The position numbers and the translations under genes were made by a program. A stretch of DNA of 64,000 bases, taken from assembly GCA_021904315.1 (NCBI GenBank), contig CM038908.1:10188501-10252500 (forward strand), in the 5' to 3' direction. This DNA is from Sphagnum magellanicum (Eukaryota > Streptophyta > Sphagnopsida > Sphagnales > Sphagnaceae). This document shows positions 11,025-59,355 of this stretch, one piece after another. Each line of letters starts with the position of its first letter. Position 1 is the stretch's first letter. Below the pieces are notes generated by a model that worked only from the letters and a program-made list of their open reading frames with translations, did not search any database and was not told where the DNA came from.

Positions 11025-14000
11025 TTATCTTGCTGGAAGTCTTGAACTCTGCAAGCACTCCACCTGAGCCACAAGTGAAAGATCACCCTCACAGGCTGTC
11101 AACAGCAACTGTACTCTTTTGTCAAACTCTTCACTGCTCAACTCTGCCATTTCCTTTCTTGGTGATGGAGGCTGATACTCCAGAAGCTGCATCAACATAC
11201 CCTGCAACAATGCATAAACACTTCATTAGGGCAGCTTGCTTGAATAGGAGGCACATAGAACTAAGGACCAGAGAACAACCTCTTGATCTCTCACAAAACA
11301 TAGGTTTACCTGCTGCTGTACCTGTGTTGAGCTTTGAACCAGAGTTGTGATCACCTTATTAAGTGCAAGCTTCTCCTTCACAACATTTCCTGCTATGAAA
11401 ATATAACCAAAAATGTGATGCAAGGCTAATGCAAATGACATTGAGCCTCCCACAGCTGCAGTTTCATATGCTCCTGATGTCCACGCAGAGACATACGCCT
11501 CAATCATCTGGTTGTTTGTCTGCATCACAACATGAAAATTCTAACAATGTCAGAATAAACACCATCTAAAATAGGACAGCTGAGATAACTTGCTTCTGAA
11601 TTTACAAACTGACTGTCTAAGAGTAAACGCTCCACATAGTCTCCACACTTGATTTGAAAGCAAATGTGAATTACCTCAAATGGGTACAGGTAACCCCATT
11701 GTTGACCACAGCACTCAGTCAAAGGAGGAAGCAACTTGAGAACTTGCGCTTCAGCCAATTGGTGCCATATAGCAAGCCGTACAGAGTCTGGCACACCCTG
11801 CCGCAAATATATGGCTACCTGGCGACCAAAGACCAAATCACCATATGAATTGGCACCAAATTGCTCTGCAAGAGTTTCTGCAAATGTGGTGTAGTTGCCA
11901 TCAATACAACAGATAAAATCCAGAGGCATGCTTGAAGGTGATTCATCAAAACGACTTGCCATATCTGATCTGAACTCAGAGGTTTCTAAATGTTTCATTT
12001 TTGGCCAGTTATCAAGCTGATGCCCATAGAACTCCTGCAAGGTTCCCACCATTTTGTGGACATCCTCATGCAGGAAGAAACCATCTGCCAGAACAAAAAC
12101 AGTTGATAATGCATGGAGTTTTCTTATCAATGGTATTGTCACGATGAAGTTGCTTTCACTCTCCTCCATTGTCTCACTCAGAGCTTCCAAACTCAAAAGC
12201 CATGAAATACCAGCTTTCACAACCTCTTCCATCTCCAGCTTTTCTTGTACAGCAACTGAAACTTTGTGACCTGTCAAGACCTCTATTCCTTGAGACCCAT
12301 CAAGAAAATGAGATATGTTAGTTGCCATAGGGCTTAGAAGCCAATGTGATGGCAGTGGCAGCCTCTGTCTTGCCCACTCTCTCACCAAGGAGTCCATTGT
12401 ACTACAAGCATCAGTCCCTTCCTCCTCACACACAGTTGCAAGTCTCAAAGAGCCAAAAGTTGATTTTTCCCTTTTTGATACTTTTGGATTGATATCTGCT
12501 TCTCTTTTTGAGGCTTTCCACAGTTTTGTTGATGTCCACGTATCCCTGAAGTCCTTCATGAGAAGCTTGGAGACCAGTTGAGGGTCCAAGCTGGAACTCA
12601 AAGTCAAGCCCTTCATCCAATCACTGCTGCCCTTAGATTCATCCCAGCTCTTCATCACAACTTCCATGTTTTGGAACAAGAATGCTAGCATATCAGGGTG
12701 CAGCAGGGATTTCAAACAAGCTTGCTCTACTAGATCACCATTCTCAGGATCAGCAATTGCAATGATTCCAAACCAGCAGCTGATTCTCCACGTAAAGTCA
12801 GAGGCCAAGACCTCCTCTCTGCCCATTTCACAATCAAGAGCCTGAGAAAAACTTCCATGACTTGGGGGTAAAATCTCCAGCAACTCTGCCACAAGCCTGG
12901 CACTAGCCTGGGCAACAAGAACCCCTTTGGACCAAGCTCCTCCTCCAACAGAACCCCAGCCCAATCCCAGACCAGGGGCAGGACCTCCCCTCCCATTTGC
13001 CTCACTAGACTGTAAGACATGACCATTCATGATCACTTCCTTCCCCACAAGGGCCAGCAAACCTCTCAACTCAATAGCACCTGAGGCCACTAAACCATGG
13101 TCCAAAACATTGTGGCCTTCAAAGTTGTCACCCATGTATATTTGTAGACCACTCTCTGGTTTTGCACTTCCAATTAATTGGTCCAGTATGTTCAGTAGTC
13201 GCACCAGACCATGCAAGCAGCTAGTTGCAGCCAAAGACATTTCATAATTTCCCCTATGCCTGATAGCACACAAGCTTGCCAAGAGGGTACTCTTCTCACT
13301 ACCTAATTGTGCAGCTGCTGAAGCCAAGCTCCCATACTTGAGAACCCCATTCGTTGCCAATAGAAGTCCAAGGTGAGGGATGAAGGTTGGCAACCATGGA
13401 ATGCATGACACAGTATTTCTCCCTTCTTTGTCCTCATTCCCAATCTTCTCACTGACTGTGGCAAGAAAATGAAAAACTGATGCCAATGTTCCAACCAATT
13501 TTGCCCTGCTACCATCTCCTGTGGTCAAAGATTGTTCATCTCCATGTGCAGCAATAACCAGTTCGTTAGTCGCAGCAGACACAGATTCAGTTGACAACCA
13601 CCCAATTGCTGTCTCAACCACAGGGATAGCAACCTGCCATGTCCAGTTGATATGGATGAATTCCTCAGTTTCAGTATCCAACATTCCTCCCTCTTGTGAG
13701 TGGAGTCTTGGCAGTGTTTGGGCCAGGCTTTCAAGCAAGATGTATGACTCCTGGGCCAGACACAATGCATCCTCTTTCTTGTTGCTGGCAATGTCTTCTG
13801 ATGACAAGGGGGTGAGCCAGAAACACAGAGCAGGATAGATGTCTGAAAACAGGGAAATGCCCATCTGATAATGTATGCAAACACGCCATAGACGGAGTGA
13901 TGCAATTATTGTTGAGCGGACTCCTTCAAAACATTCCTCACCAAGTCTTGGGTGCAACTGCATGGGGTATCCCTGTCTGTAAAGTTCACACTGTGCCACT

Positions 14001-17000
14001 TGCAGAGCTCCTGACTCTGCAAACCGAATGCAATTCATCCTACTTGCCTGTAGCAATACCTGCACATTACATCAATCATGCACTGCATTAAATCACGAAC
14101 ATGTACACAGCAAAGTCTTTGAACAGGCCCTTTATTGGCGTGCATGAATTAGGTGAATCCACAGGGTTTAGAGAGACGGTGATGCACCTTGAGAAGTTCA
14201 ATGGCCTTTGTATGGGCAGGACGCAGGGCATCAACCTCAGCATCCAACTCATCATCCATAAGAAAGAATTGTTGGATGATGGAATCCATCAGTCTGGGGC
14301 ACTTCATGACAGCATCAGCAGCTCCAGGGGAATGTCGTGCCAGAGCTACTACCACACTCAGCAGTGGCTCATTGGCTCCTGTGATCTTCTCCACCTGTGT
14401 TGAATCCTTCCTGTGTTACTCAGAACAGCTGAAATACTGACATGTTCATTTTCCAGTGCAGCACAATGAAACAGTGATTTTATTTTGTAGTACTGCTAGA
14501 CTATGAGTATTGCAAAGCAGCATAAAGAGAGGAAAGACCTCGAGAATAAAACGTATCCTGGGCAAGATGCCCATACGGATAAAACCAGCAGCAACATCTT
14601 TGATTGCAACTGTAGCATCATCTCCAACTGTCTCTTCATCTTCGCCACCATCAACTTTGGAACTGACCCTCTCAGAGAATGGAAACATCTCATTTGTCTT
14701 GACATTGTACTTCCAGTGACCTCCTCCAAGAAAGCCCTCACTGTGTTTTGTGTGTCTTCGAAAGATAGGTGCCATAAATGTTGATATATCACCAGGCCAA
14801 AATGCCTGTCAAACTCACCAAAGAATGTATTAAGACTTTACCAAGACAGGCTTTGATATCCATTTGAAGCTTTCAAACTGCAACAAAGTTTACATGCCCA
14901 TGAAATATACTGCTGCTTCAAAACCACACCATGGGATAGTGAGAACCTCATGGAGATTGGAAATCACTTCATTAGCAGAGCAGGTCAGGATTGCCTGTAG
15001 AGCCTTGGAACAGGCTACAACCACAGTGGTGTGTTTGTCATCCAGTGCAAGTCTGCACCCACAAGGCACTTGAACAAAGTTAGTCACTAGTATAATCATC
15101 CAACAAATATGGACACAGCAACCTTGACAACTTGCAAAATGAAATGCTCAAGCTAAACAGAGTGATTGTGAACACCATGCCTGAGTGTTAAGACTAGCTG
15201 TGGCTCTGGACCAAGAGCATATGCCCACACAGCTTGCCAATCCACTTCATTGTGTTCTTCTACTTTTGAAGGTCTGAAAGGAAAGCACAGGCACTGGCTT
15301 TGAATTCCTGCAATGGCCTTGTTCAGCACAGCTGCAATCAGCCGCAGGGCAAACACTCGGTGACCTGGAAACTGCAAGGCAGACAACAATTGAAACCTGT
15401 TGGTTTGAAAAAGGATACAAACATGGTGACACCACTATATAGAAAGCAGCAGAACAACATATATAAAAAACATGTCTGAAGAAGGGCTCACATACTGTGC
15501 TCCAAATGAGATCTGTTGCCTCCTTCAGACTGTAGCCTTTTGCAGCAGGATTCCCTTCTGACTGCAAATAATCGCACTCAGCAATACTCTTCTCACTCAA
15601 GGTTACAGCAGAAGACGTGTCATCTGCATACAATCATCAACAAAAGTCAGAGATTGTGCAGGATATACATAAGGAGAAAGAGGTCAGATTTTTTGATTTG
15701 TTGATGAGCATTCATAAAATAGAAAGAAAGTCAAGAAATTAAGAGAATTACTCAGCCTCATTGGTGCACCTGCTTCATCAATACCCAAAACATTGCCTTC
15801 CAGATCAAACTTGTGCAGCCTCACAGCCTCCACTCTCTCGGTCCAGGACTTGACCCGAACAACTGAGTTTCCCATATTATTATGTCCTACTGCAGAAAGC
15901 TGCTGCGAGAGGGCAGATAATGTTTTCTTCTCTTCACTCCCAGTCTCAAATGACTCTACAGTCTGCAAGGCTTCACTACTTCCAACATTACCAGTAGTCA
16001 ACAACAACAACTCGTCATTTCTCTTATCTTCTGCATGCCGGTTCTTGACTTTCTTCAGCCCCCTCTTTCTCAGCATGTCCAGCACTTCTGGTTTGAAGCG
16101 CTCCATCAACTCTGTCTGTGGCCGGGCCACCTCAGCAGTTGACATAGCAGCAATGACAGCCCGATTTTCAGCATCAATTGTCATTGCATCAGTTCTTCCA
16201 TCATCTGGAACTCCCTGACTGTCATCACTCCCATGCCTAGCAGTAGCAGGAAAATTGCTTCTTGCCAAAGCTGCAGCAGAAGCAGCATAATGCAGAGGTG
16301 CCTCATCATTCAGAACCACTTCATGTGGCATGCCCGGTGAGCCTTCTTCTGCAACTCTACTAATCTCTTGCATGGTGGTGGAATCAGAGTTCTTCTTCAT
16401 CATCTTCCACCTACTCACTGACAATGCCGCTTTCTCCTTCCCCTGCGGCTTTGCCAAAGCTGACAATGCTTCTGCACCTGATTCTTCCCCATCGTCCTCT
16501 GCCATCACTGCAGGCTCTTCTTTGGTGATCGGTAACCAATGCTGCAAATCAGAAACCTCAGAAGATTGAGCAATTCACAACCACCTGCGACCTAATCCAA
16601 GCAAGACAAACTGACGAAGAAGAATTTTATTTTATTTTTCTCGGAATATGTGTGCGTGCGTGCGTGTGCGTGCGTGCGTGTTTCAATCCACTGAAGAAAT
16701 AAAATTGTAGCATCATGCTTCATGGCCAAGTGCATTGCAATTGAGGAAAATGCAAGAAAACTGCGTGACTACACAGAAGGAGTGGAATGGATATGTAAAC
16801 TACCAGGAGCAGAACAGAGTAATGGAAATGAAGACTAACCAGGCCCTGGGATCGATGGCGAGCCACAGGAAACGCAGTGACACTAGAATTGCCAGGAAAC
16901 GACACGAGGGGAGCGGATACCGAAGAAACAAGTGAGGAGGGCAATCCTTTCTCCTTGATTCCACTCATAGCCGGAAGAGCCTCGTAGCCTGTTGTGTCCG

Positions 17001-41301: not shown

Positions 41302-41869
41302 GGCCCAAACCTTTCTTTCTCCTTTTAGTTTTTCTAGAATTCCTTTGTCAAAAGCTTCCTCCATAATAAGCTAGGATTTCTAGATGCTCATGGCGGCCAT
41401 TGCACGGCCACCGTCTACATACATTTCATTTCCTTCTTTCTTTGCAATTCAATTCTAGAAAAACTACACTTTCTGTGCTTCATGTTGAAAGCCACAAATT
41501 TCTTTTGCTTGTAAGTTCTTGAGTAAGTTCTTGAGTTATTATTGCTATTGTTGGTGCTACTGTTGCCGAAGGATGTTTGTGTTGCTGCTATCCGAAGGAG
41601 CTCGCGTTGGTACTGGAGGGAGCTTACGTGTTACATTCATGTCAACCAACAAAGTTGAAATCTTTGAACAGGTTTCAAAGCTCCCCCTCCCTTTTTCTTT
41701 ATGTCTCTCTCCTATGGCAGCTAAGAAGTTTTAAAAAAAAACAAAAATTTAGGTGGCGGTAACGGCCGCCATCGTTGCATAGCAACTAAGCACCGCCTGC
41801 CATGGTTGTCGTGTTCCCGTGACACGAATTGCAGTGCCACATCACGTACACCGCGTAGCGTCGGGCTGT

Positions 41870-42385
41870 AGTGCCACAGCGTTGTGAGCTACAGCCGCGC
41901 GGTAGCGTCACGTTGCAAGCTGCAGTAATGTCGTAACGTCGCTGCATTGTGAACTGCAACAGCGGGTTGTAACAACGTTACAGTGAACTCCACCAGCGCT
42001 GTAGCAAGCTCCACCATCGCCGCGCAACCAGCTCCACCATCACTATGCTGCAACAGCACCATTGCTACGCAGCGCTGCAACGCCATCGCTGCGCTATAGC
42101 AGCAAGCCATCGTTGCGTTGCAACATTGCAAGTTACAACGCCGACATCGCCGTCGCAACGACCAACCTTCATCGGACTCTCGTCGAACTTTCGTCCTGCA
42201 CCTTGTCGTCCTACACCATGTCGTCCTACGTCTTATCGTATTGCGTCCTACGTCCTGCACCTATCGTCCTCCGCCCTGCCGTCTTGCCTTTTCATCCAAC
42301 ATCTGTTTGACTTCCGTCCGACCTCCGTCTGACCTTCGTTCGACCTTCGTTGGATGTTCATCTGACCTTCGTGCGATCTCTGTGT
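41870..42385. repeat. GC-rich degenerate minisatellites in gypsy leader/LTR
   Basis: 41870-42150 is made of variants of 'gctgcaacagc' and 'agctccaccatcgc'; 42170-42385 of 'ctgaccttcgt' and 'gtcctacgtc' units. Open frames on both strands are by-products. The composition stands out against the AT-rich flanks. Confidence 0.5.
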
Positions 42386-42724
42386 GTCACGGGTCATTCC
42401 CAACAACGCACTATATTTTTCAAATTGTACTTTGTGTTAGAATTTTGTAGTTAGTGCTGTGTACTATCACAAAATTTTGGGGCATGGGACAACATCATGT
42501 CCTCGGATGATGAGAGCACTACTGCTCAACCAGAGCCCAGGTATCAGCTATGAAGTAACACGCAATCCTTTGAGCTGATTTATTTAAGTTCATAATCTTC
42601 ACGACGGTCCCATCAAGTGTCTACAGCACCATCATCATCTAGTACAACTCCTACCAAGAATTCAGGTTCAAGTTACACTACATCAACAGTACATCAAAGT
42701 CCATTTGGAGGGGTTTAGTGGGGC

Positions 42725-44700
42725 ATGCCTATTGCTGCACCTACTTTCACACCATCATCGTATACTCCATTGCAAGCTGTGACTTCAAGATCCATTTACA
42801 CCATGGAGGTCAGCAATTCCTCTGGGAGAATTGAGAAGTTCAGTGGAAGGCCAGGCACTATTTCTTTGAGGGAGTTCAAGGCAACTTTCTCAACTGTGGT
42901 TTGTGAATTGGAGCTCAAGTATGGTGCTAATTACACCGAAGCGTTTGCATTCAAACAATTGGCTTGTTATGAGAACTATGAGGCATTGGATGTCTACGAG
43001 CAACATTCTACAAGGATTTTGGGTGTCACCCAGATTCCCAATCCAACTTACGCCATAGCCATCACCACCGCCTCTCAAGCTGCATTGCAAGCTACAATTG
43101 CACATCACGGGACTGTGCCGAATAATCCAGACTCGGTACCTACTTCAATAAACCTTTCTCTTCAACAATTCATTGCTACTACTACAAACATTCCTCCCAC
43201 CACCGATGCGCCAACTTTTACCGATCCAGTGGGGGAATTCTTTCGAATTCTTGAACTGGAATTTCCAGTCAAAAGTTCTAAAATAATTTTGTAGCTCGCC
43301 ACCTTCTCTCGGCAGAAGGATGAAACCCTCAAGATGCTTTACAAGAGGCTTCTCAAACTCAAAGAGGATACCCAGAGCATCATCGACTTGGAAGCTCCTC
43401 ACCGGTATCTTCGTTCGTTGGAAGGTACTCCAACACTCCACGCGCACGTTTTACAACGGGTCTTTGCAGAATTTGGAGACTCGTACATTTTGTTGGATGT
43501 GTACAACATTTCCGGAAAGTTGGAACTGGCTCATGCACACTATGAGGCCAGTACTATGAGGCCTCCATCATGTTCAAAGCCTCAACCTACACCAGCTGCG
43601 CCAACTAGATCATCACATTCTTCTTCAAGGACTAAAGCGGTGCACTCGGCTACACCCATCTTTCCTTCTTGCAACTACTGTGGCAATCTTGCCCACAAAG
43701 CTAGTGAGTGTAACATTCCTTCCGAGGATCTCTTTTGTGATTATTGTGGGAAAAAGGGACATCAGGAATCTGTTTGTTTTGCCAAGTTCCCAAAGCAGAA
43801 GCAACTCCGATTACAACGACAAAATCTGCTAGCATCTTCCGCTGTCCTTCAACCAAAAGCCAAGGCACCTCAACCTTCCACTCACGCTTTGCCCACCAAG
43901 GGCAATTCCAACAAGAATGTTAAGAAGAAGGAGCATAACACTGACAAGAGGGACGTGCTTCAAGCCCATGCAATTCAAGTATAGACTTTACATAATGAAC
44001 TCGAATCATTAAGGGCTCAACTTGCTAATCTAAAAGGCAAGTTCTCCCAACTAGCTAATCATGCCCAACCAGTACAAGGTTTAGGATCACGAGAGGGACC
44101 CCCTAGGTCATTCTATGGCCTTCCACACGATGCCATGGTTGGGGAGTATGTTCTTTCCACTCCACACAATTCTAGTCTCACACCAGAATTTGCTACTTCT
44201 TTTTGCCCTTCCTATGTCACAACACAAGAAGCTAGTGTGGCACCCAGAGTTTCTGCCACTAGGCAAGTAATTCAGACTGATGAACTCGCATCTGGTTCAA
44301 GTCCTATTACCAGGGCTAGAGGAGCTTAAGCAGTCATGCCACAATCTTTTCGTCCTCTCAACATGGAAGAAGAACGCACCTTGTTGGCGAAGGGGGAGGA
44401 GACTACTACACCACAAGTTGTTAGGGCATCAAATTCTCGTGTCCCAGGAGTACATGTACATCAGGAAAACACACAATTTTCCACTAATTAGCTTATGGAA
44501 TGTCAACTTTAAATGCATGAAGTGGCGCAAAAGCTTGTGAGTACACCATTGTTTAGTTTTCAAGATTTGAAGCTAAGCACCAAGGACATAATTGCAATCT
44601 TAGAGGATACCTTGAACACTACATCAAGTCTTCTACCAATCCCTGATCCACATGCTACAAAGGTCCCATCCAACACCTTGGAGAGACATTCGATTGGCTC
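42725..44700 (+). pseudogene. gypsy gag (nucleocapsid with two CCHC knuckles)
   Basis: Capsid-like region from about 42803, then two zinc knuckles of the form C-x2-C-x4-H-x4-C: 'CNYCGNLAHKASEC' (43670-43711) and 'CDYCGKKGHQESVC' (43736-43777). A Pro/Ser/Lys-rich linker follows. Gag packages the element RNA into particles. The frame continues beyond in-frame stops at 43292 (TAG), 43982 (TAG) and 44327 (TAA), plus further stops near 44490-44510, without changing phase. They are therefore point mutations rather than domain ends. Confidence 0.8.
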
Positions 44701-44899
44701 ACGTGTTGCAGATAACGTTCGTAATATGGTCACTAATTCTAACATGGCTAAACTAGTGGGCTTTCCTACCTCTGATTCTACATTCACATATCAGAAGGGA
44801 GTTCAGAACACCTCACTTGTGGATTTATTACTTAGCAAAGGTGTTGTGGATAGCCATTCTCTCCACAGAGTCTCTCACTCATTTTCGAAGGTGGTGCCC

Positions 44900-45260
44900 A
44901 GTGAGAGAACTTCCATCGCCACCGGAGTTGCCATTGTCGACAATACTGGGTCAGTAATCCAAGTGCGAGGACATACACCCAGAGTGGTATTTCTTGACCA
45001 GTGATTCTTGGAGTTCAATTCGCCAAGAAGATGGGCATGCTTAACTCCAAACTACGAAAATCTATGTGGCAGATTCGCACCGCTAGTGGGAGCGTAGAGG
45101 AGGTACTTGGGGAAAGCTCGGATTTGATTGCACTTAAGTTCAATGAAGGTACAGATCAGGAGCTTTGCTTACAGGTCAGATGTTTAGTCACTAATGCCAC
45201 AAGTTATGATGTGCTCATTGGGCAAGAGGCCCTGTTTCCACCAGGTTCACAATTGACAAC
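44900..45260 (+). pseudogene. gypsy aspartic protease, broken at the active site
   Basis: Downstream of gag in the same frame, 'VVFLDQ' ends in a stop exactly where the catalytic Asp-Ser/Thr-Gly triad is expected. The next frame picks up with 'VILGVQFAKKMGML' and later 'YDVLIGQEALFPPG', the usual C-terminal half of a retropepsin. A small deletion has removed the residues after the Asp and shifted the frame. The enzyme normally cuts the polyprotein; this copy cannot. Confidence 0.7.
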
Positions 45261-45626
45261 TAGTTCGAACATGCGTACTACCGAGTGGATTGGGAGATTA
45301 ATGGCCACCACCTGGGATACATACCCTTTGATTTACATGAGAACCATAGTCCTATGGCTCACCATTGTATGGTCAAGGAAGCACACACCATTTCTTACAT
45401 CCAAGAAGTTAGCCACGAATGGATAGAGGGAAATGAGGAGGAGATAGCTTACGCTCAAGCTACTGAAAGCTTGAAGGTGGTTCCTACTGACATTCAACAT
45501 GGACCAGAGGTTTTACAAAGGTTCAAAGTAGCCCACAAGCCCTTGGTCAAAGCTTTGTCTAGTTTTGAGAGCATGGAGAGCCATGGCAAACCGATTAAGC
45601 CATTACTTTGTCAGCAAATCACCTAG

Positions 45627-46612
45627 ACACCACCTAAGGAAGGGATTACATTACTAGAGCTCTTTGGTGGTATTGGTACAGGTCTCGAAGCCCTACTACA
45701 GTCAGGGATGGTGGTTCGAAGGTATTTCTACGTAGACATTGATGCTATTGCAAGGCAAGTGGCGGCATCAAGAATGAGGGAGTTCACAACAAGATTTCCA
45801 CAACAATTTGCAACCACCGCATGGAAGGCTAGTTTCACATTTTTGCCCTCTGACATACAACTAATTCAAAAGAAGCATATGGAATTACTTGGCCTGTTGA
45901 CCTCATCATTTCAGGTTGGGAATGTCAAGGATTTTCAGTGGCTGGATTTGGAGAAGGCTTGAGTGACATAAGATCTGGTCTTTTCATGGACATGATACGA
46001 TTGATCACCTGGGCTCAAACCATTTCTCCTACATTTGGTTATGTAATTGAGAACACTCCTTCTCAGCTTTATCAGAGGGAGAAAGTCCAGGAGCACTACA
46101 CACTAGTCCAGCATTACCTTGGAGAGCCGCTCTTACTTGATGCGGCACAATGCGGTTCCTATGCGCACTGGCTGCGCAACTGGTGGACCAACTTGGCACC
46201 ACTCTCAATTCTGTAGCTAGCTCTGAAATACACTATCAGAGACTCGAACCTGCAGGTTTCTCACATATTGGATGATCAAAGTTGTTGCCAACCAATTACA
46301 AGGCAAGAAAAACCTCTTTGGTTTCCTACAAACACAATAGGAAAACCAAAAAGTGTTTGGCCCACCTTTGTCTCCTTCCTAGGAGCACATGCCTTTCAAG
46401 AAGATGGGCTAGGCCTGGTTTATCGTCATGCTTCATCCAATTGGGATGAACCAAGCCCAAAAGAAAGAGAAAGCGCTATGGGGTTCTAAGCTGGCATTAC
46501 TAATCACACTAAGGTGACTAAATTGGAGTGTAATGCTCTACTAAGGAGAGGCATGGACCTGAACTCCCTTACATGGTTGTTGGTAACTTGTGTACTCTTT
46601 CAAATGTACACA
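45627..46612 (+). pseudogene. C5-cytosine DNA methyltransferase domain (DNMT3-like) in the gypsy polyprotein
   Basis: Motifs appear in the linear order of C5 methyltransferases. Motif I (cofactor loop) is 'ITLLELFGGIGTGLEALLQS' at 45645-45704, then 'YVDIDAIARQVA' (motif II). Motif IV is 'VDLIISGWECQGFS', with the catalytic Cys codon at 45923-45925, followed by 'GFGEGLSDIRSGLFMDMIRL'. Motif VI is 'YVIENTPSQL' (Glu-Asn-Thr, 46049-46057) and motif VIII is 'QCGSYAHWLRNWWTNL'. The end reads 'EPSPKERESAMGF' and 'RRGMDLNSLTWLL', resembling the C-terminus of DNMT3 ('E..vmGFp..Td ... lLG.s..v.vi.hLl'). A one-base shift near 45885 splits motifs II and IV. In-frame stops lie at 45624, 46214 and 46487. 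C5 methyltransferases add a methyl group to cytosine using S-adenosylmethionine. The domain sits between protease and reverse transcriptase, in the reverse transcriptase frame. Assignment as methyltransferase is firm; the DNMT3 subclass is less sure. Confidence 0.85.
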
Positions 46613-48541
46613 ACACTAACACTGATTCAATCAACTTGCAGTTCTAGCGATGCAACCACATGGCACCCCGACCAAGTACACTTGCCTATTTTTAACATTC
46701 TACATTTCACTCTTAGTGTTGGGGGGGAGGAAGTACCATGTAATTTGACTCAAGTTGTGTCTAATACACCTAGAGGTGCATTAGCTTCTGGAGAAACAAT
46801 TACAACCTTCTACGAATCTACGCAGTTGGATAGTGGAGATCCCAATACACCAGGTTCTTCAAACACACTTTCCAACTCCATTCCATGTGTTTCCAACTAC
46901 CCTTTCATTATGGGGAACCAGCTCACCAAGAAGGAGAAAGACCAAATCACAAACTTGTTAATTAAATAGGAGAATGTGTTTGCATTCTCAATGAAAGACT
47001 TAGGTAGGTGTAAGACCATGCAATTATCTATAGACCTTACAGATGAAACACCCGTCTATCGAAAGAGGCATAGGTTGAGCAAACATGAATGGGAACTGGT
47101 AGATGAAAAATGCAAAGAGCTCCATGAAGCCGGTCTCATTCAGCCATTAATAACTGATTTCGTAGTCGCTACAATAATGCCAGCAAAGAAAGATTCAGCT
47201 GGATTATGGACTGAGAAAAGGATGTGCGGGGATTATAGGCCTTTGAACCTAGTTACACCGCAAGATAAGCACCCCATGCCCATCCTTGAAAAATTGTTTG
47301 ATAGCATTGGAGATTCAAACATCTTCACAATTGTGGATCTGAGGCAAGGTTTCAACCAAATTGTGCTCACTGCGAAGGATTGCAAGAAAATAACATTCCA
47401 TGGAAGCAACAAGTTATGGGAATGGCTTGTGATGCCTTTTGGATTGAAGAATGCACTTGTCTTCTTTCAACGAGTCATGGCCCAAGTTTTCGAAGGGGCA
47501 GATTTCCTGAAGTGCTACATAGATGACGTCCTAATGCATAGCAAGGGACTCCTGCATCATTTGGCTCATCTTGAGGAGTTATTCAAGAAGCTCCATGAAG
47601 TCAATATGAAGATCCATCCTAAAAAGTGTGAGTTTGTTGTCACCTTAGTAATCTACCTTGGACATAAAATTTTGCCAAATGGTATTATGGCTCATTGGGC
47701 CAAAGTAGTAGCCATTTTGGAGATGCCCAATCCTACTGATGTTCACAAGTTGAGGAGCTTCATCGGACTATGTAATTACTACAAAATTTATGTCCAAGAT
47801 TTTAGTACTATTGCTCATCCTCTCTATGCATTGTTAGAAAAGGATCTTGCTTGGACATGGTGTGATGAAGCTCAAGAAGCTTTCAACACACTCAAGGAAA
47901 AGCTTTTAGAGTTCCCCATTCTGAGAAGACCTAATTTCAACAAGGTTTTCATTCTACACACTGACTGGAGTGCTCTTGGTATTGGAGCTATTCTTGGCCA
48001 ACTTGATGAGGAAGGCAAGGAATATGTTATCGCCTATGCATCTCGAAGCAACAACAAGGCTGAAAGCAACTACTCTTCATACGAGGGGGAATGCCTTGCT
48101 ATTGTATGGGTCGTCATACATTTCAGGCCCTATCTTTATGGCACCAATTTCACTTTGTATACTGACCACCAGCCTATCAAGTGGTTGATGACCAATGATA
48201 AGCTTACTGGTAAGTTAGCTCATTGGGCGCTTATACTTCAAAAGTATGAATTCAAGGTTATTCACCGACCTAGTATTACACATCAGAATGCGGATACCAT
48301 GTCACGAAGACCCTTCACTACCTCTGAAGATTTTTTAGAAGGCAAGCAAGATTTTGACCAGATTCCAACAATACATGTATCTGAGGCATCTAATTATCTT
48401 GCACTACTGCAATGTAACCTGGTTGAACATCCCATTCTTGATATATGGGAGGACTTGGACACTTTGAGGTTTCTTCAACATGGGGAATACCCTCCCCAAA
48501 TTACATCAAGTCAACGAGATCGGATACAACAGCGGTCCTAA
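46613..48541 (+). pseudogene. gypsy reverse transcriptase and RNase H
   Basis: An open stretch of 521 codons from 46976, continuous in frame with the methyltransferase except for a TAG at 46967. RT landmarks: 'YRKRHRLSKHEWELVDEKCK', 'RMCGDYRPLNLVT', 'FTIVDLRQGFNQI', 'WLVMPFGLKNAL', and the catalytic 'YIDDV' (47516-47530). RNase H follows with its three acidic residues visible: 'LHTDWSALGIGAIL' (Asp), 'YEGECLAIVW' (Glu), 'LYTDHQPIKWL' (Asp). Then comes the 'HRPSITHQNADTMSR' linker typical of Ty3/gypsy. It copies element RNA into DNA. This is the best preserved part of the copy. A TAA at 48539 separates it from integrase. Confidence 0.9.
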
Positions 48542-49700
48542 TGCCATTCATGGAGGGAGAATCACCTCGTCCGATGCTTACCACAAGGCGACAGAGTGGT
48601 TCCATCACCACATGAACGGCTTGGTCTTATTCAAAAAGTACACTCGGAGCTTGGACACTTTGGAGTTAAGCGTACTTATAGCCTTCTTGCTCCTCATTAC
48701 CATTGGAGAGGTATGTATGCTCAAGTCCGAGACATCATTGCTAGGTGTGAACAATGTGATAGAGTGAGAACTTCTTTCTCCTCTCGACAGCTCACGCTTT
48801 CTCCACTCCCTATTCAGGGCATGTTCTATTGTTGGTCATGTGATTTAGCTGGAGAGTTACCACAAACCTTTAAGGGTAATGTTTACATCATGATTATGAT
48901 TGAGCATTTTTCAAAGTGGGTTGAGCTTGTTGCGTTACCAGACAAATCATCACACAACACCAGCCATGCTTTCTTACAATAGGTTCTAAGTAGGTTTGGG
49001 GCTTGTGTTGAGTGCCTTATTGATCAAGGATCAGAATTCAAGGGAAAATTCCAAGACCTACTTGACCATGCTCTCATTGACCATCGTCAAACTTCAAGAG
49101 ATCATCCTCAAGCTGATGGCCTTGTAGAAAGGATGGTTCAAACTGCAAGAAGGGACTTCGGAAGATTTGCCTCACTAAGAACAAAGAGGATTGAGACCTG
49201 GCCCTCCCATACTTCGTCATGGGTTACAAGATGTCCAAACACGCCTCTTTATCTCATTTCTCTCCTTACTTTTTACTTTTTGGGAAACATCCCATTCCAC
49301 CCTCTTCCATTGCTGTTCAAATGGACCAGGTTGTGGACTTGGATTCCCCAGCCACTTGGGCTAGGGTCATTGCAGAAAGGGTTGCTCTATTCAGGAGGGT
49401 TATGCCCATGGCCATGGAAAACATGTCCATTACACAACATCGAGACACCTTACGGTATGCACACACACGAGGTGGTAGTTACAAACCTAAGGTGAGACAA
49501 TTTGATGTTGGTGATTTTGTATATCTCCAGCGGCAACCAAATGATACTCTAGACACTTCTTCTGGTCGCATTATCTTGAGGATTAAGGTGACCAGGCCTT
49601 CAGGTGTGTTGGAGCTACAAGGAGCTGACGAACGCACAATTCGTGATCATTCCAAAAATTGTGCGCCTTGCCACCTGCCGAACTTGGATCCTACCATCAT
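48542..49700 (+). pseudogene. gypsy integrase
   Basis: Zinc-binding HHCC motif: 'VHSELGHFG' and 'RCEQCDRV' (48640-48770). The DDE core shows 'CDLAGELP' (first Asp), 'CLIDQGSEFKG' (second Asp) and 'HPQADGLVERMVQ' (Glu). The C-terminal part carries 'FDVGDFVYLQRQ', the usual start of the GPY/F-like module, before the PHD finger. An in-frame TAG at 48980 and a frameshift near 49150-49220 break it. Integrase inserts the DNA copy into a chromosome. Confidence 0.85.
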
Positions 49701-49734
49701 CACGTCGACTTGGATTCCTCCACTTGATTATCCA

Positions 49735-49887
49735 TGTCAGGTATGTCAAAGGACAGAGGATGTTGATCAAATGCTGCTTTGTGACAATTGTAATGGTGGA
49801 TACCATCTCTTCTGCCTCAAGCCGGAACTCACTCAAGTTCTTGCCGGCAATTGGTACTGTTCATCATGTTCTCCTACAGCACCTTAA
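49735..49887 (+). pseudogene. PHD finger at the C-terminus of the gypsy integrase
   Basis: The last 50 codons before the stop at 49885 spell a C4HC3 PHD finger: Cys pairs in 'CQVC' and 'CDNC', then 'YHLFC' and 'WYCSSC', with the conserved Trp two residues before the last Cys pair. PHD fingers read the state of histone H3 tails. Here it takes the place that a chromodomain has in chromoviruses, so a role in choosing insertion sites is likely but inferred. The module itself is intact in this copy. Confidence 0.9.
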
Positions 49888-52099: not shown

Positions 52100-53066
52100 A
52101 TGAGAGCTGCAATGGTTGCATTAATTGTGTGCACAATTACGGCGCTGTTGCTATTAGGTGTGGCTGATGCCGCGGACCCAGATCCTTTGCAGGATTTCTG
52201 CGTGGCGGACTTGTCCCCAAATGCTACAGTACATGTGAATGGTTTTCCTTGCAAAGACCGCGCAAATGTTACTTCCAAAGACTTCCTTTACACGGGCATG
52301 CGTCTTGCTGGTTCGAGCTTTCAACTTGAACTTGGCGTGCGTAATTAATGGTTGATGTAATAGATCTTACTTTATTAGCAGCTCCTCGACGACGAGAATT
52401 AGCTGGTGTATGATCTGCAAGTCTAGCTAGTCGCATTTGAACGTCTTTTGGTATACCCATGATCCATTCTTCTCTACATTCGACCTGCACAGTTTTCTGC
52501 AGTGGTTGCAGGTCATGCACGAGCTGGTTCTAATCTTTTATCAGCTTTCTCCTCGTCATGTGGGTGGGTGGTTGGTATTTTCAGGAAATGTGTCTCTCAC
52601 AGGTACCAACGCCGTCCCCAAGGTTGTGAATGTGTTCCTGTACCCAGCTCTCAACACACTGGGCATCTCTCATGCTCGACTGGATTTCGGTATCGGTGGT
52701 GTCATTCCTCCTCATACCCATCCCTTCGCGACCGAGACTTCGTTTGTGGTGAAAGGGACCATCTACACAGGCTTCATTAGCTTCGAAAATGTACTATACG
52801 CAGAAACCTTGCAAGAGGGAGACATCTATATCTTTCCCAAAGCAACCCTACATTTCCAACTCAATGTAGGTGATGGACCTGCAGTGACCTTCAACAGCCT
52901 CACTTCCCAGAATCCTGGATTCGTGACTGCAGCAAACCAGCTGCTATTTACGAACATCTCGGCTCCAGTTCTTGAATCATCTCTGGGAATAAATGCCGAA
53001 ACTCTCAAGTTACTACAAGACTCTAACATTCCTCTCTTCTTTGGAGGATCTAAAAGCCGCAGCTAA
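52100..53066 (+). CDS. Germin-like protein (cupin)
   Basis: Two exons (52100-52310 and 52585-53066), phase 1 junction, 230 residues, the normal size for the family. The start was chosen so that residues 1-24 form a clean signal peptide ('MRAAMVALIVCTITALLLLG', cleavage near Ala-Asp). An in-frame ATG at 52034 would bury it. Mature protein has the two N-terminal cysteines that form the germin disulphide ('DFCVAD', 'GFPCKD'). Germin box 1 is 'GVIPPHTHPFATETSFVVKG' (His, His, Glu metal ligands). Box 2 is 'GDIYIFPKATLHFQLNVG' (fourth ligand His; the usual PxG reads PKA). Germin-like proteins are secreted, manganese-binding, often hexameric wall proteins; some are superoxide dismutases or oxalate oxidases. 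Which activity this one has cannot be told. It lies between two hAT-like terminal sequences (51.2 and 55.4 kb). Confidence 0.93.
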
Positions 53067-55854: not shown

Positions 55855-57717
55855 ATGGTATGCACTTCGACTTCCTTATGCATCGATTCTGGCTTCCGCT
55901 CTGCTGTGTTTTGTTCTGTTTCTCTTCTTTTTCTCTCTTTCTAGTTCACAGATTTGTGTTTGATTGGTTTCAGTTAAATCGGTGTTCCTCTTTCGTTTAG
56001 GGTTTCGGGAGCTCATGTGGGCGCTGCGTATTGCTTGTGTTATTTTTTTTCCTTTGGTTTTTGGGAAACGCCTGGCGAATCTTGATTTGACAGAGGCTGG
56101 TCCGTGCTTTTGTTCAGTCGTGGAATGTCGTGTTTTCTCGTTGGAATGGCTAGCAAATCTGTAATATTGTAGAAAGACTGACGGAGGGCAGTGCCACAGG
56201 TGAAGTACGCGCGTGAACCTGACAATCCCACAAAGGGTAAGCATTGCACTCTTTGAATCGTGTTTTTATTCATTTTGCTGCGAATATGAAGCGGGCAGGT
56301 TCTTTTGGGTTTTGGATTGATTCGAAGAAGCATGCGCTTTTTTTGTCGTCTTTAGGGTTTTGGATTGGCTAGATGAAGCATGTGCTTTATTTGTGGTCTT
56401 TTCTGGTTGAGTTTCTCTTGAAGAAGTGATCCGCCAATGTGCATCTTGATGCCAGCTTGATCTGTGTTTATCTTCCATGTGCAGCATGCAAGGCCAGAGG
56501 ATCGGACTTGCGTGTGCACTTCAAGGTGTGGACTATTCACAACCCTTGTTGGTAGCTCAATGATTTGGCTGACTTGTGACATGTGCACACATCTCTGTTG
56601 TTGGATTTGCTTTTTGTTTATGGCTAACTCCGGAGTCCTTGTGCAAATCAGAATACCAGAGAAGCAGCGCAGGCCATTAAGCACCTCGAGTTATCAAAGG
56701 CCAAGAGGTACTTGGAGGATGTGCTTGGACACAAACAAGCTATTCCCTTCCGTAGGTTTTGTGGTGGGGTTGGCCGCACTGCACAAGCTAAGTCACGGCA
56801 GTCTAATGGACAGGGACGGTGGCCAGTGAAGTCAGTCACGTTTCTGCTTGGCTTGTTGAAGAATGCAGAGAGCAATGCTGAGGTATTGTCTCTGTTGCCC
56901 TGAATATTTTCTGTTCATTGTTCATAATTGTGGTGCATGATATGATGTTCATTATCTTCCTAGTCATTGTCTGCTGTCATTTGGAGTGGGAGAAAAGGTG
57001 TATACACAATTGCACCTTGTTGGGCAACCTGTTCAGCTGACAAGTTTCTGGCTGCAGGTGAAAGGCCTTGATGTAGACACCCTCTTCATCTCTCACATTC
57101 AGGTCAACAAGGCACAAAAACAGCGGCGCCGGACATACCGTGCACATGGGAGAATCAACCGTATGTCCTCTTTAAGCCCTTTTTTGTGGGTTGGTTTTGG
57201 TGCAAGGCAATGTCTTTTGGGTGATACTGTATCTCCTCGCAGATCTTGCAGGTAGTGAATTTCATAATAGTGGTCTACTGTTGAGGACATGCAGATTTTG
57301 TGGTAGGAATCCTAGTTGATTGCAATTTGGATCTTTTGGTTGAAGCAAATGGTACTGGTGGTGTTTCTGGTATTTTACAGCCTACATGTCATCTCCATGC
57401 CATATTGAGCTTACTCTCTCAGAGAAGGAGGTGGCTGTCAAGAAAGAGGTGAGGGTTTTGACTTGTTTTCATCTTCATAGAAGTTATCATTAGATAACTT
57501 TGGAATCTATTGTACTTTTTAATTGTAATCAAAGGTTTGACATGGTTGGTAGTTATTGCACTTGCACTCTCTGCCTTGTTGGACAAGTATTGCTGCATTG
57601 GTGAAATAACACTTCGATAATGTTGAATACTGCTTGCAGGTTGAAGCACAAATAGCTCCCCGGAGGCCCCGCAAACAACAGGCTCGGTTGCGTAGTGGTG
57701 TCACATCTACTGCATAG
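55855..57717 (+). CDS. RPL17: 60S ribosomal protein uL22 (RPL17)
   Basis: Seven exons with matching phases: 55855-55857, 56200-56236, 56485-56525, 56652-56882, 57058-57160, 57381-57448, 57640-57717; 186 residues. The first coding exon is the ATG alone. The protein follows plant RPL17 almost residue by residue: '[20 protein letters not shown]', '[17 protein letters not shown]', '[20 protein letters not shown]', '[20 protein letters not shown]', '[20 protein letters not shown]'. uL22 lines the nascent-peptide exit tunnel of the large ribosomal subunit. The C-terminal tail is basic and slightly longer than in Arabidopsis. Introns of 126 to 342 bp all have GT..AG borders. A telo-box-like motif sits about 90 bp upstream. 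Expected to be strongly expressed in dividing cells. Confidence 0.96.
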
Positions 57718-59125
57718 ACTGTAGCACTCTGGTGCTTGCTTGTCAATGGGTTGACAGATTTTGACAATCTCAGAACATTTCCAAGTTTGGGCATATGCTG
57801 CCCAGTTTGTATGCAGCATTCTGTGAGGATGAAATTCTGTTCTTTACATTTGAGATATTATTTTGTTGTTGACAAGTTCTTGGTTTTCTTTTTAAGGTTG
57901 AACAAACTTTTGGTTGAAAGTGTGTGTTTGAGAAGACTCTCATGTCTAGGGTCCATGAGCAAGGAGACAGTAATGTCACAGAATTACATTCAACCACACA
58001 AGGATGTGGAGGTCTATAGATCTGCAACATTTTGCCCAATTAAGTTGTGGAAACCATTTTGTTTGTATGAGTATTCAGAAAGTTCATTCCAGGTCTTCAG
58101 TGGACTTTATTTTTGGTTTGGTGGATTTCATGCTTTGTTTTGAGATTTTGACATCACTTTCTGCTGAGTCTATAGCAACATGAATAGCAACATGTTGTGC
58201 ATGATGTGGTGGCCAGTGATGACTTTAATCTTACCTACATTGTCTGAATGATGTGATGTCATCACCTTTTTGTGCTTCTGAGGCCACCATGTTTTGTATG
58301 TTATTCTTTGAAAGATTTTGAAGATGTTGACATCAGTGACTGATGCTTGCTGATTTTGCTGATTTTGTTCAGAATTCCATAGTCTTATGGTTGACCTCCA
58401 CTCAATACTGAAGGCAATGATGATTAAGTTACCTATTTTGTGAAGAGGTTTATCCTCAGGGATCAGAAATATTTTGAATGAGCCTTCTGAAGTTGGAGAT
58501 ATAAGTTGCAGCTTCCTGATGATTTGACTTGTCATGACTATTATTAGATTCTAGTTTCATGGCTCTTGATCTCTAACACAACACTATTTTGAGTCTTCCA
58601 GCATGTTTTGTGACATCTGTGTTCTGACTCATGTGGGATTTGAAAACAACTTTCATATGAGGAGCTGTGCGTCTTGACCAATTAGTTGCCTCACTTCTAC
58701 CAGTTTCAGTTTTGGAGGTAATCATGGTCCTAATCATAATCCTGGAAGTAAGTTGAATGCATGTTTAAGGTATACCTTGGTTGCTCTGTTCTGATGAATT
58801 ATTTTCTTTTGAATTTCCTCAATGTATAGAAGGTAATTAGTAGCAAATTGTGCCTTTTTTCTGATGGGCATTTTCAGGGATTTTCACATCTGTGAGGACT
58901 ATGTACATTGAAATGTGAGTAGCAAAAATGTTTATTGGTGGTTGTGGTCCAGCTTTTGGGGATATGCAAGTTTATCCGTGTCAGGTCTAGGTCATGCATT
59001 TATTTCTTGGACATCATCTTTTAAGTTTGAAACCTTTTGACCATTACTTCTTTCTCTCTTTTCAGTGCTTCTCGAGTTCTGCCTGGATGCTGATGAAAGT
59101 GTCATGTTCTCTGAGTTCATGTAGT

Positions 59126-59355
59126 TTGCCAATGGGTTGATGATATGTTTTGCAGACTCCAGTATGATGACCAAAATACAGACTACAATTATCTGACCAT
59201 TGGCAAACACAGGTTCTTTTCATGTCATTTGGGGGAGTATTTGTTTGTGGTGGAGTTTGCAAATTGTGCAAGCCAATGGATGATGATATGGTTGTCAGAT
59301 CTCATTATGGTGACTAAACTACAGACTACAATTATCTGACCATTGGCTGGCATTG
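59126..59355. repeat. Two tandem short inverted-repeat units
   Basis: Unit 1 (59126-59206) runs from 'tttgccaatgg' to 'ccattggcaaa'. Unit 2 (about 59268-59352) runs from 'aagccaatgg' to 'ccattggctgg'. Both share 'cagactacaattatctgacc' near the right end. Each is about 80 bp, the size of a tiny MITE. Confidence 0.75.

What the first reader, a model, noticed from the sequence alone, without database searches (positions are those of the whole stretch)
45627..46612. A Ty3/gypsy retrotransposon that encodes its own C5-cytosine DNA methyltransferase
Seen: methyltransferase motifs I, II, IV, VI, VIII and a DNMT3-like C-terminus lie between retropepsin and reverse transcriptase, in the reverse transcriptase frame. 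The domain belongs to the polyprotein and is not a nested host gene. Known: capture of cytosine methyltransferases by retrotransposons has been described, as far as I recall, in dinoflagellates and charophyte algae; plant retrotransposons are normally targets of methylation. Inferred: the element could methylate its own DNA copy, hiding from or steering host silencing. The DNMT3-like layout suggests de novo activity.
Basis: partly seen in the sequence, partly recalled or inferred. Interest (0 to 1): 0.92.

Follow-up and report, generated by a model that had tools for sequence, protein, structure and literature searches.

The report
Jumping gene carrying a DNA-methylating enzyme
A dead copy of a plant retrotransposon really does carry a DNMT3-type DNA-methylating enzyme inside its own polyprotein, and relatives in a liverwort and a green alga carry it too, which extends a phenomenon so far reported from two algal lineages into land plants.

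Summary
At 45627-46606, between retropepsin and reverse transcriptase of a Ty3/gypsy element (42803-49887), lies a whole C5-cytosine methyltransferase domain with motifs in DNMT3 order. This copy is dead (stops and frame changes from gag to integrase), and no LTRs were found. The domain is no stray insertion: relatives encode protease-methyltransferase or methyltransferase-RT-RNaseH in one ORF, one of them from the liverwort Calypogeia fissa. A second group, with two proteins labelled as a green alga, has the methyltransferase elsewhere (RNase H - methyltransferase - integrase) and shares a PHD finger behind the integrase. The nearest solved structures are DNMT3s. The catalytic Cys and motif VI Glu are kept, but the Pro before the Cys is Glu in all 21 rows of the window/liverwort clade in my tree. 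Retrotransposon DNMTs, including a gypsy one in Klebsormidium, were published in 2018 (PMC5890265), so the kind is known. Unreported, as far as my ten paper searches show, are the land-plant and alga-labelled members, the two positions, the PHD tail and the altered motif IV. Self-methylation of the cDNA is the likeliest role, but activity and dN/dS were not tested. The host is unidentified.

The parts
42803..43792 (+). gag with two CCHC-type zinc knuckles (seen by eye), broken by a stop at 43292-43294
   Evidence: GAG profile E 3.2e-52 and 9.3e-57; P0124 residues 1-734 align at 42803-44998; Pfam zf-CCHC_5 only 0.047, below its cut-off
44998..45252 (+). aspartic protease (retropepsin) part; the part upstream of it is in another frame
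   Evidence: PR profile E 2.4e-41; relatives P0124, P0125, P0126 hit PF13975, only P0126 above the Pfam cut-off
45627..45899 (+). methyltransferase motif I region, frame of the ORF upstream
   Evidence: MT profile E 1.5e-46
45890..46606 (+). methyltransferase motifs IV, VI, VIII and C-terminal motifs, in the RT frame, with two in-frame stops
   Evidence: MT profile E 5e-60, 1.7e-37, 6.5e-8; PF00145 E 7.5e-8
47189..47674 (+). reverse transcriptase core
   Evidence: RT profile E 1.4e-66
47858..48247 (+). RNase H
   Evidence: RH profile E 2.1e-59
48611..49117 (+). integrase (H2C2 zinc part and core), stop at 48980-48982
   Evidence: INT profile E 5.7e-49 and 1.7e-17
49408..49704 (+). integrase C-terminal part, in another frame than the core
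   Evidence: INTc profile, built only from four proteins of the RH-MT-INT type, E 1.4e-36
49735..49869 (+). PHD finger at the end of the polyprotein; C4HC3 ligands present by eye
   Evidence: PF00628 E 1e-11; nearest solved PHDs WSTF, KMT2D, Lid, ATXR5

Best explanation
The window holds a decayed copy of a Ty3/gypsy retrotransposon whose Pol polyprotein includes a DNMT3-type cytosine methyltransferase between protease and RT, and a PHD finger after the integrase. Shown: the anatomy, its recurrence in other copies and hosts, and protein-level conservation. Inferred: the methyltransferase is made as part of Gag-Pol, is packaged with RT and integrase in the element's particle, and methylates cytosines of the new cDNA (or of the freshly integrated copy), so that the copy arrives looking like host chromatin; the PHD finger helps to choose the integration site by reading histone H3.
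For: Single unbroken ORFs in relatives: gag-PR-MT (P0124, 1214 aa), PR-MT (P0125; P0126 of Calypogeia fissa), MT-RT-RNaseH (P0121, 820 aa). Of 61 long relatives, 38 carry another retroelement domain. In 10 pairwise comparisons the MT is more conserved than the linkers in 7 of the 7 where a linker was measured, and within 5 points of protease or integrase in 4 of 10. MT distances track those of PR (r 0.98, 9 proteins in two clusters), RT (0.84, 8 proteins) and RNase H (0.55, 12 proteins). Catalytic Cys in 60 of 60 tree rows and motif VI Glu in 59 of 60, two rows being DNMT3. Nearest solved structure DNMT3A, 1.5e-15. Published relatives: both SymbioDIRS DNMTs tested methylate CG de novo in yeast (PMC5890265, section 10).
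Against: All 21 rows of the window/liverwort clade have Glu in place of the motif IV Pro (41 Glu and 19 Pro over 60 rows), so ordinary catalysis is not assured. In the other 6 of 10 comparisons the MT is 5 to 20 points less conserved than RT, protease or integrase. At least 5 of the 120 listed fragments have lost the Cys, as decayed copies would. The published gypsy enzyme (KnitGypsy) gave no activity in yeast, which its authors call inconclusive. MT distances do not track those of the integrase (r 0.02, 9 proteins). No dN/dS, no expression, no assay. No LTRs found here.
Confidence: 0.5

Rival explanations
1. The enzyme acts on host chromatin around the insertion site, not on the cDNA: the PHD finger docks the integrase complex on H3 and the methyltransferase silences or marks the neighbourhood, which limits damage to the host.
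For: The PHD finger is found in the window and in 7 of the 10 relatives that show an integrase. Its solved relatives include PHDs of ATXR5, KDM5, BAZ2 and UHRF1, several of which I recall as readers of unmodified H3.
Against: The methyltransferase is at the other end of Pol in the window type. No histone-binding residues were tested.
Confidence: 0.2
2. The domain has lost or changed its chemistry (motif IV Glu) and is kept for another task, such as binding cDNA or RNA, or as a structural part of Pol.
For: Glu replaces the motif IV Pro in all 21 rows of the liverwort-type clade and in 20 of 26 rows of the sister clade; the tree needs 3 changes.
Against: Catalytic Cys in 60 of 60, motif VI Glu in 59 of 60 and motif VIII His in 59 of 60 rows, which a merely structural role would not require. 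DNMT3 rows are included in these counts.
Confidence: 0.2
3. Several separate captures: the PR-MT-RT and RH-MT-INT elements took up related methyltransferases independently, as the 2018 paper argues for dinoflagellates and charophytes.
For: Two different positions; MT does not co-vary with INT. One clade of all PR-MT enzymes is not rejected (p 0.37).
Against: The window shares gag with the P0168 group and integrase C-part and PHD with the RH-MT-INT group. In the tree the retroelement enzymes lie together against DNMT3, but with only two outgroup rows and long branches this is weak.
Confidence: 0.3
4. A recent host gene fragment inserted into this one copy.
For: None found.
Against: Of 61 long relatives, 18 have PR followed by MT in one ORF and one has MT followed by RT.
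Confidence: 0.01

Closest known systems
KnitGypsy-Dnmt3 of the charophyte Klebsormidium nitens (de Mendoza et al. 2018, PMC5890265; abstract, passages and sections 9-11 seen)
   Same: A Dnmt3-type methyltransferase with un-rearranged motifs, without introns, in the Pol ORF of a gypsy element.
   Different: Host is a charophyte alga; the sections seen do not give the domain's place within Pol, and the word PHD does not occur in the main text; repeats are DIRS-like; key residues are said to be conserved, whereas the window type has Glu for the motif IV Pro. I had no KnitGypsy sequence to compare.
SymbioDIRS-Dnmt3 and SymbioLINE-Dnmt of Symbiodinium (same paper)
   Same: A cytosine methyltransferase inside a retrotransposon; the SymbioDIRS ones methylate CG de novo in yeast.
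   Different: Other retrotransposon classes (DIRS, LINE), captured independently according to the paper.
DNMT3A/3B/3C
   Same: Best match by profile, nearly the full domain, same motif order, similar motif VIII and C-terminal motifs.
   Different: Distant; no ADD or PWWP domain found beside it; motif IV Pro replaced.
Chromoviruses (gypsy with a chromodomain after the integrase; general knowledge, and passages of PMC3350952)
   Same: A chromatin-reader domain at the integrase C-terminus.
   Different: A PHD finger, not a chromodomain.
Orchid gypsy elements with an AlkB m6A demethylase (PMC9289625; abstract and passages seen)
   Same: A plant gypsy lineage that acquired a nucleic-acid-modifying enzyme.
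   Different: RNA demethylase in an additional ORF. The abstract and passages seen, of a screen of 121 angiosperm genomes, name no DNA methyltransferase; I did not see its full list of 15 domains.

Membership tests
Ty3/gypsy LTR retrotransposon | domain order PR-RT-RNaseH-INT | tested here: met
   window coordinates; extra MT between PR and RT
Ty3/gypsy LTR retrotransposon | two long terminal repeats | tested here: inconclusive
   No flank similarity clearly above shuffles, direct or inverted; copy is old and may be truncated
DNMT3 methyltransferase | motifs I to X in linear, un-rearranged order | tested here: met
   profile A4 aligns with a DNMT3A chain (6brr) over positions 27-341 of 349
DNMT3 methyltransferase | catalytic Pro-Cys of motif IV | tested here: not met
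   Cys kept in 60 of 60 rows; Pro is Glu in 41 of 60 rows, including the window and all rows of its clade
DNMT3 methyltransferase | ADD and PWWP domains at the N-side | tested here: not met
   Pfam scans of relatives show gag and protease, or RT and RNase H, there
DRM (rearranged plant enzymes) | rearranged motif order | tested here: not met
   DRM chains match at most profile positions 26-156, while DNMT3A matches in linear order
KnitGypsy-Dnmt3 group | Dnmt3 in the Pol ORF of a gypsy element | tested here: met
KnitGypsy-Dnmt3 group | common descent with the Klebsormidium elements | not testable with these tools
   no protein named Klebsormidium among the 120 hits listed of 305, or among those listed
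KnitGypsy-Dnmt3 group | purifying selection on the MT (Ka/Ks under 0.2 in the paper) | not tested
   DNA of sister copies was not available; only protein identities compared

The most novel reading that the evidence does not exclude
One old gypsy lineage of green plants, from chlorophyte algae to liverworts, has carried its own DNMT3-type writer and a PHD reader for a very long time, moved the writer within the polyprotein at least once, and remodelled its catalytic loop: a self-marking retrotransposon lineage rather than scattered captures.
Probability: 0.35. Interest if true: 0.8.

Novelty: new variant of a known kind. Interest (0 to 1): 0.62.

Why it matters
Plant retrotransposons are normally the targets of DNA methylation. 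A lineage that brings its own methyltransferase into land plants would let the question whether methylation can serve the transposon be tested in a liverwort, next to ordinary gypsy elements in the same genome. The natural change of the catalytic-loop Pro to Glu, shared by a whole clade, is also a test case for C5-methyltransferase chemistry.

Tried and rejected
Chance similarity, or a host gene fragment inserted into one copy: rejected.

Phage or bacterial origin of the domain: with the liverwort-type alignment A1, scans of viral contigs and genome contigs gave 23 and 20 pattern matches and no relative by tblastn. The titles of the 80 genome-contig loci are bacterial or archaeal; the IMG/VR contigs bear no organism. 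Among their 4204 stop-to-stop frames of at least 150 aa the best MT-profile score was 61.5 bits, and none hit my RT, RNase H, integrase, PHD, protease or gag profiles at E 1e-5. I take them for distant family relatives; they were not put into the tree.

A programmed stop before the RT: rejected, because relatives P0121, P0122 and P0123 have tyrosine there.

LTR search, direct and inverted, over several ranges: best scores 28-32 against shuffle maxima of 31-39; one of the six comparisons (5' flank, inverted, 32 against 31) was just above its 12 shuffles, over 20 bases. MT against INT distances: r 0.02, against simple co-descent. One clade of all PR-MT enzymes: neither shown nor rejected (p 0.37).

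Full report
OBSERVATION. The open frames of 40-54 kb show gag, protease, methyltransferase, RT, RNase H and integrase pieces on the + strand. Pfam finds DNA_methylase in 45854-46216 (7.5e-8) and a PHD finger at the C-end of 49195-49887 (1e-11). Profiles that I built from relatives, not from the window, place gag 42803-43792, PR 44998-45252, MT 45627-46606, RT 47189-47674, RNase H 47858-48247, INT 48611-49117, INT C-part 49408-49704 and PHD 49735-49869, and hit nothing else on the + strand or on the - strand.

STATE OF THE COPY. It is dead. Stops or frame changes lie in gag (stop 43292-43294), in the protease (frame change near 45.0 kb), before and inside the MT (frame changes near 45.25 and 45.89 kb; stops 45624-45626, 46214-46216 and 46487-46489), before the RT (46967-46969) and in the RNase H/integrase part (48539-48541, 48980-48982, frame change near 49.2 kb). 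No LTRs were found by three searches.

RELATIVES. The piece 45854-46216 had 361 hits among 364 candidates, 120 listed, these 64-87% identical. A search for longer ORFs gave 10 hits among 566 candidates: P0121, 820 aa with MT, RT and RNase H; P0124, 1214 aa with gag, PR and MT; P0125, PR and MT; P0126, named by its source as Calypogeia fissa, a leafy liverwort, PR and MT; P0130, RT, RNase H and MT. A third, profile search scored the best 8000 candidates and gave 305 hits, 120 listed. Of the 61 proteins of P0121-P0218 with at least 285 residues, 38 carry another retroelement domain and 23 the MT alone. PR comes before MT in 18, RT or RNase H before MT in 12, MT before INT in 10 (3 of these also among the 12), MT before RT in 1; none shows both positions. 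Of the 10 with INT, 7 show the PHD finger. The profiles were trained on some of these proteins, so for them the counts are partly circular. P0155 and P0161 bear the label Chrzof1, which I read from memory as Chromochloris zofingiensis, a chlorophyte; the other proteins of that type are unnamed. P0196 shows the order RT-RNaseH-MT-INT-PHD in one ORF, the PHD match being cut short and just under the Pfam cut-off.

WHAT KIND OF METHYLTRANSFERASE. A single relative matches DNMT3C and 3A first in the PDB (2e-4). The six-domain profile matches DNMT3A at 1.5e-15, in one chain over nearly the whole domain; DRM at 3e-10 over its first part only; HhaI at 1e-5. No chain named DNMT1, CMT or MET1 is among the 56 matches up to E 1. 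In a tree of 60 rows (57 retroelement proteins, being those of the 218 with at least 230 profile positions, plus the window, DNMT3A and DNMT3C) the window falls into a 21-row clade with P0126 (support 100/100). This clade is sister to the 26-row RH-MT-INT type clade (98/85); outside lie P0190, the P0168 group and the P0182 group. The bootstrap had not settled and long branches are present. The catalytic Cys is in 60 of 60 rows, motif VI Glu in 59 of 60; the residue before the Cys is Glu in 41 and Pro in 19, needing 3 changes on a tree built without that column. In the wider set of 120 fragments, at least 5 have lost the Cys.

CONSTRAINT. dN/dS could not be done. Of 10 protein comparisons, the MT is within 5 points of PR or INT in 4: P0126/P0124 (PR 75%, linker 55%, MT 71%), P0168/P0124 (PR 43, MT 45), P0168/P0171 (PR 87, MT 88, gag 57), P0161/P0158 (INT 46, MT 45, linkers 30). 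It is lower in 6: P0125/P0124 (PR 87, MT 78), P0161/P0196 (INT 49, MT 42), P0121 against P0213 and P0130 (RT 43 and 40, MT 35 and 35), P0213 against P0216 and P0196 (RT 77 and 73, MT 57 and 59). In all 7 with a measured linker it is above the linker. MT distances follow PR, RT and RNase H but not INT; the PR set is two clusters, so its r of 0.98 says little.

MECHANISM. Inferred only: packaging with Pol, methylation of the cDNA or new insertion, and targeting by the PHD finger. The 2018 paper proposes cDNA methylation for the DIRS elements (discussion). The altered motif IV makes catalysis the first thing to test.

LITERATURE. Ten searches of the held library (open-licence PMC papers, no preprints). 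Six papers were opened: PMC5890265 (abstract, passages, sections 9-11), PMC9289625 (abstract, passages), and passages of PMC6338049, PMC3286476, PMC3350952 and PMC9998398. Of these, only PMC5890265 reports retrotransposon cytosine methyltransferases as a finding of its own in what I saw, in dinoflagellates and K. nitens; a search of its text for embryophyte, moss and PHD gave none. Others listed, such as PMC11244446 and PMC12344493, were seen as listings only. So the land-plant and alga-labelled elements appear unreported within that library, which is not proof that they are.

HOST. Unknown. The window also holds RPAP1, cupin and ribosomal L22/L17 gene parts. The only close relative with a named host is from a liverwort, 71% identical to the family's majority sequence in the MT core, so a bryophyte host is likely but not shown. 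The own-genome search did not complete.

Noticed in passing
window 41750-42400: A CpG island just upstream of gag: CpG observed/expected 1.06-1.43 in 250-base steps; it holds the highest and third highest of 127 bins of 500 bases (median 0.23) in a CpG-poor window. It lies where the element's leader or promoter would be.
   Followed up: partly
window 11525-16574, minus strand: RPAP1 gene parts (RPAP1_N and TPR_RPAP1); the long ORF 11525-14071 has CpG o/e of only 0.13, as if the gene body were methylated in the germ line.
   Followed up: no
window 52431-53066, plus strand: Cupin (germin-like) gene part behind the element.
   Followed up: no
window 56941-57255 and 58208-59202, plus strand: Ribosomal protein L22/L17 exon and two C/D snoRNA matches, SNORD34 and snoZ155.
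   Followed up: no
P0130 1069-1089 and P0161 737-780: G-patch-like stretches behind the methyltransferase in elements of the RH-MT-INT type (the first is below the Pfam cut-off).
   Followed up: no
P0168, P0171, P0173, P0175, P0176: A separate group of gag-PR-MT ORFs of about 1330 aa with the usual Pro-Cys in motif IV; host unnamed, possibly a charophyte like Klebsormidium (guess).
   Followed up: partly
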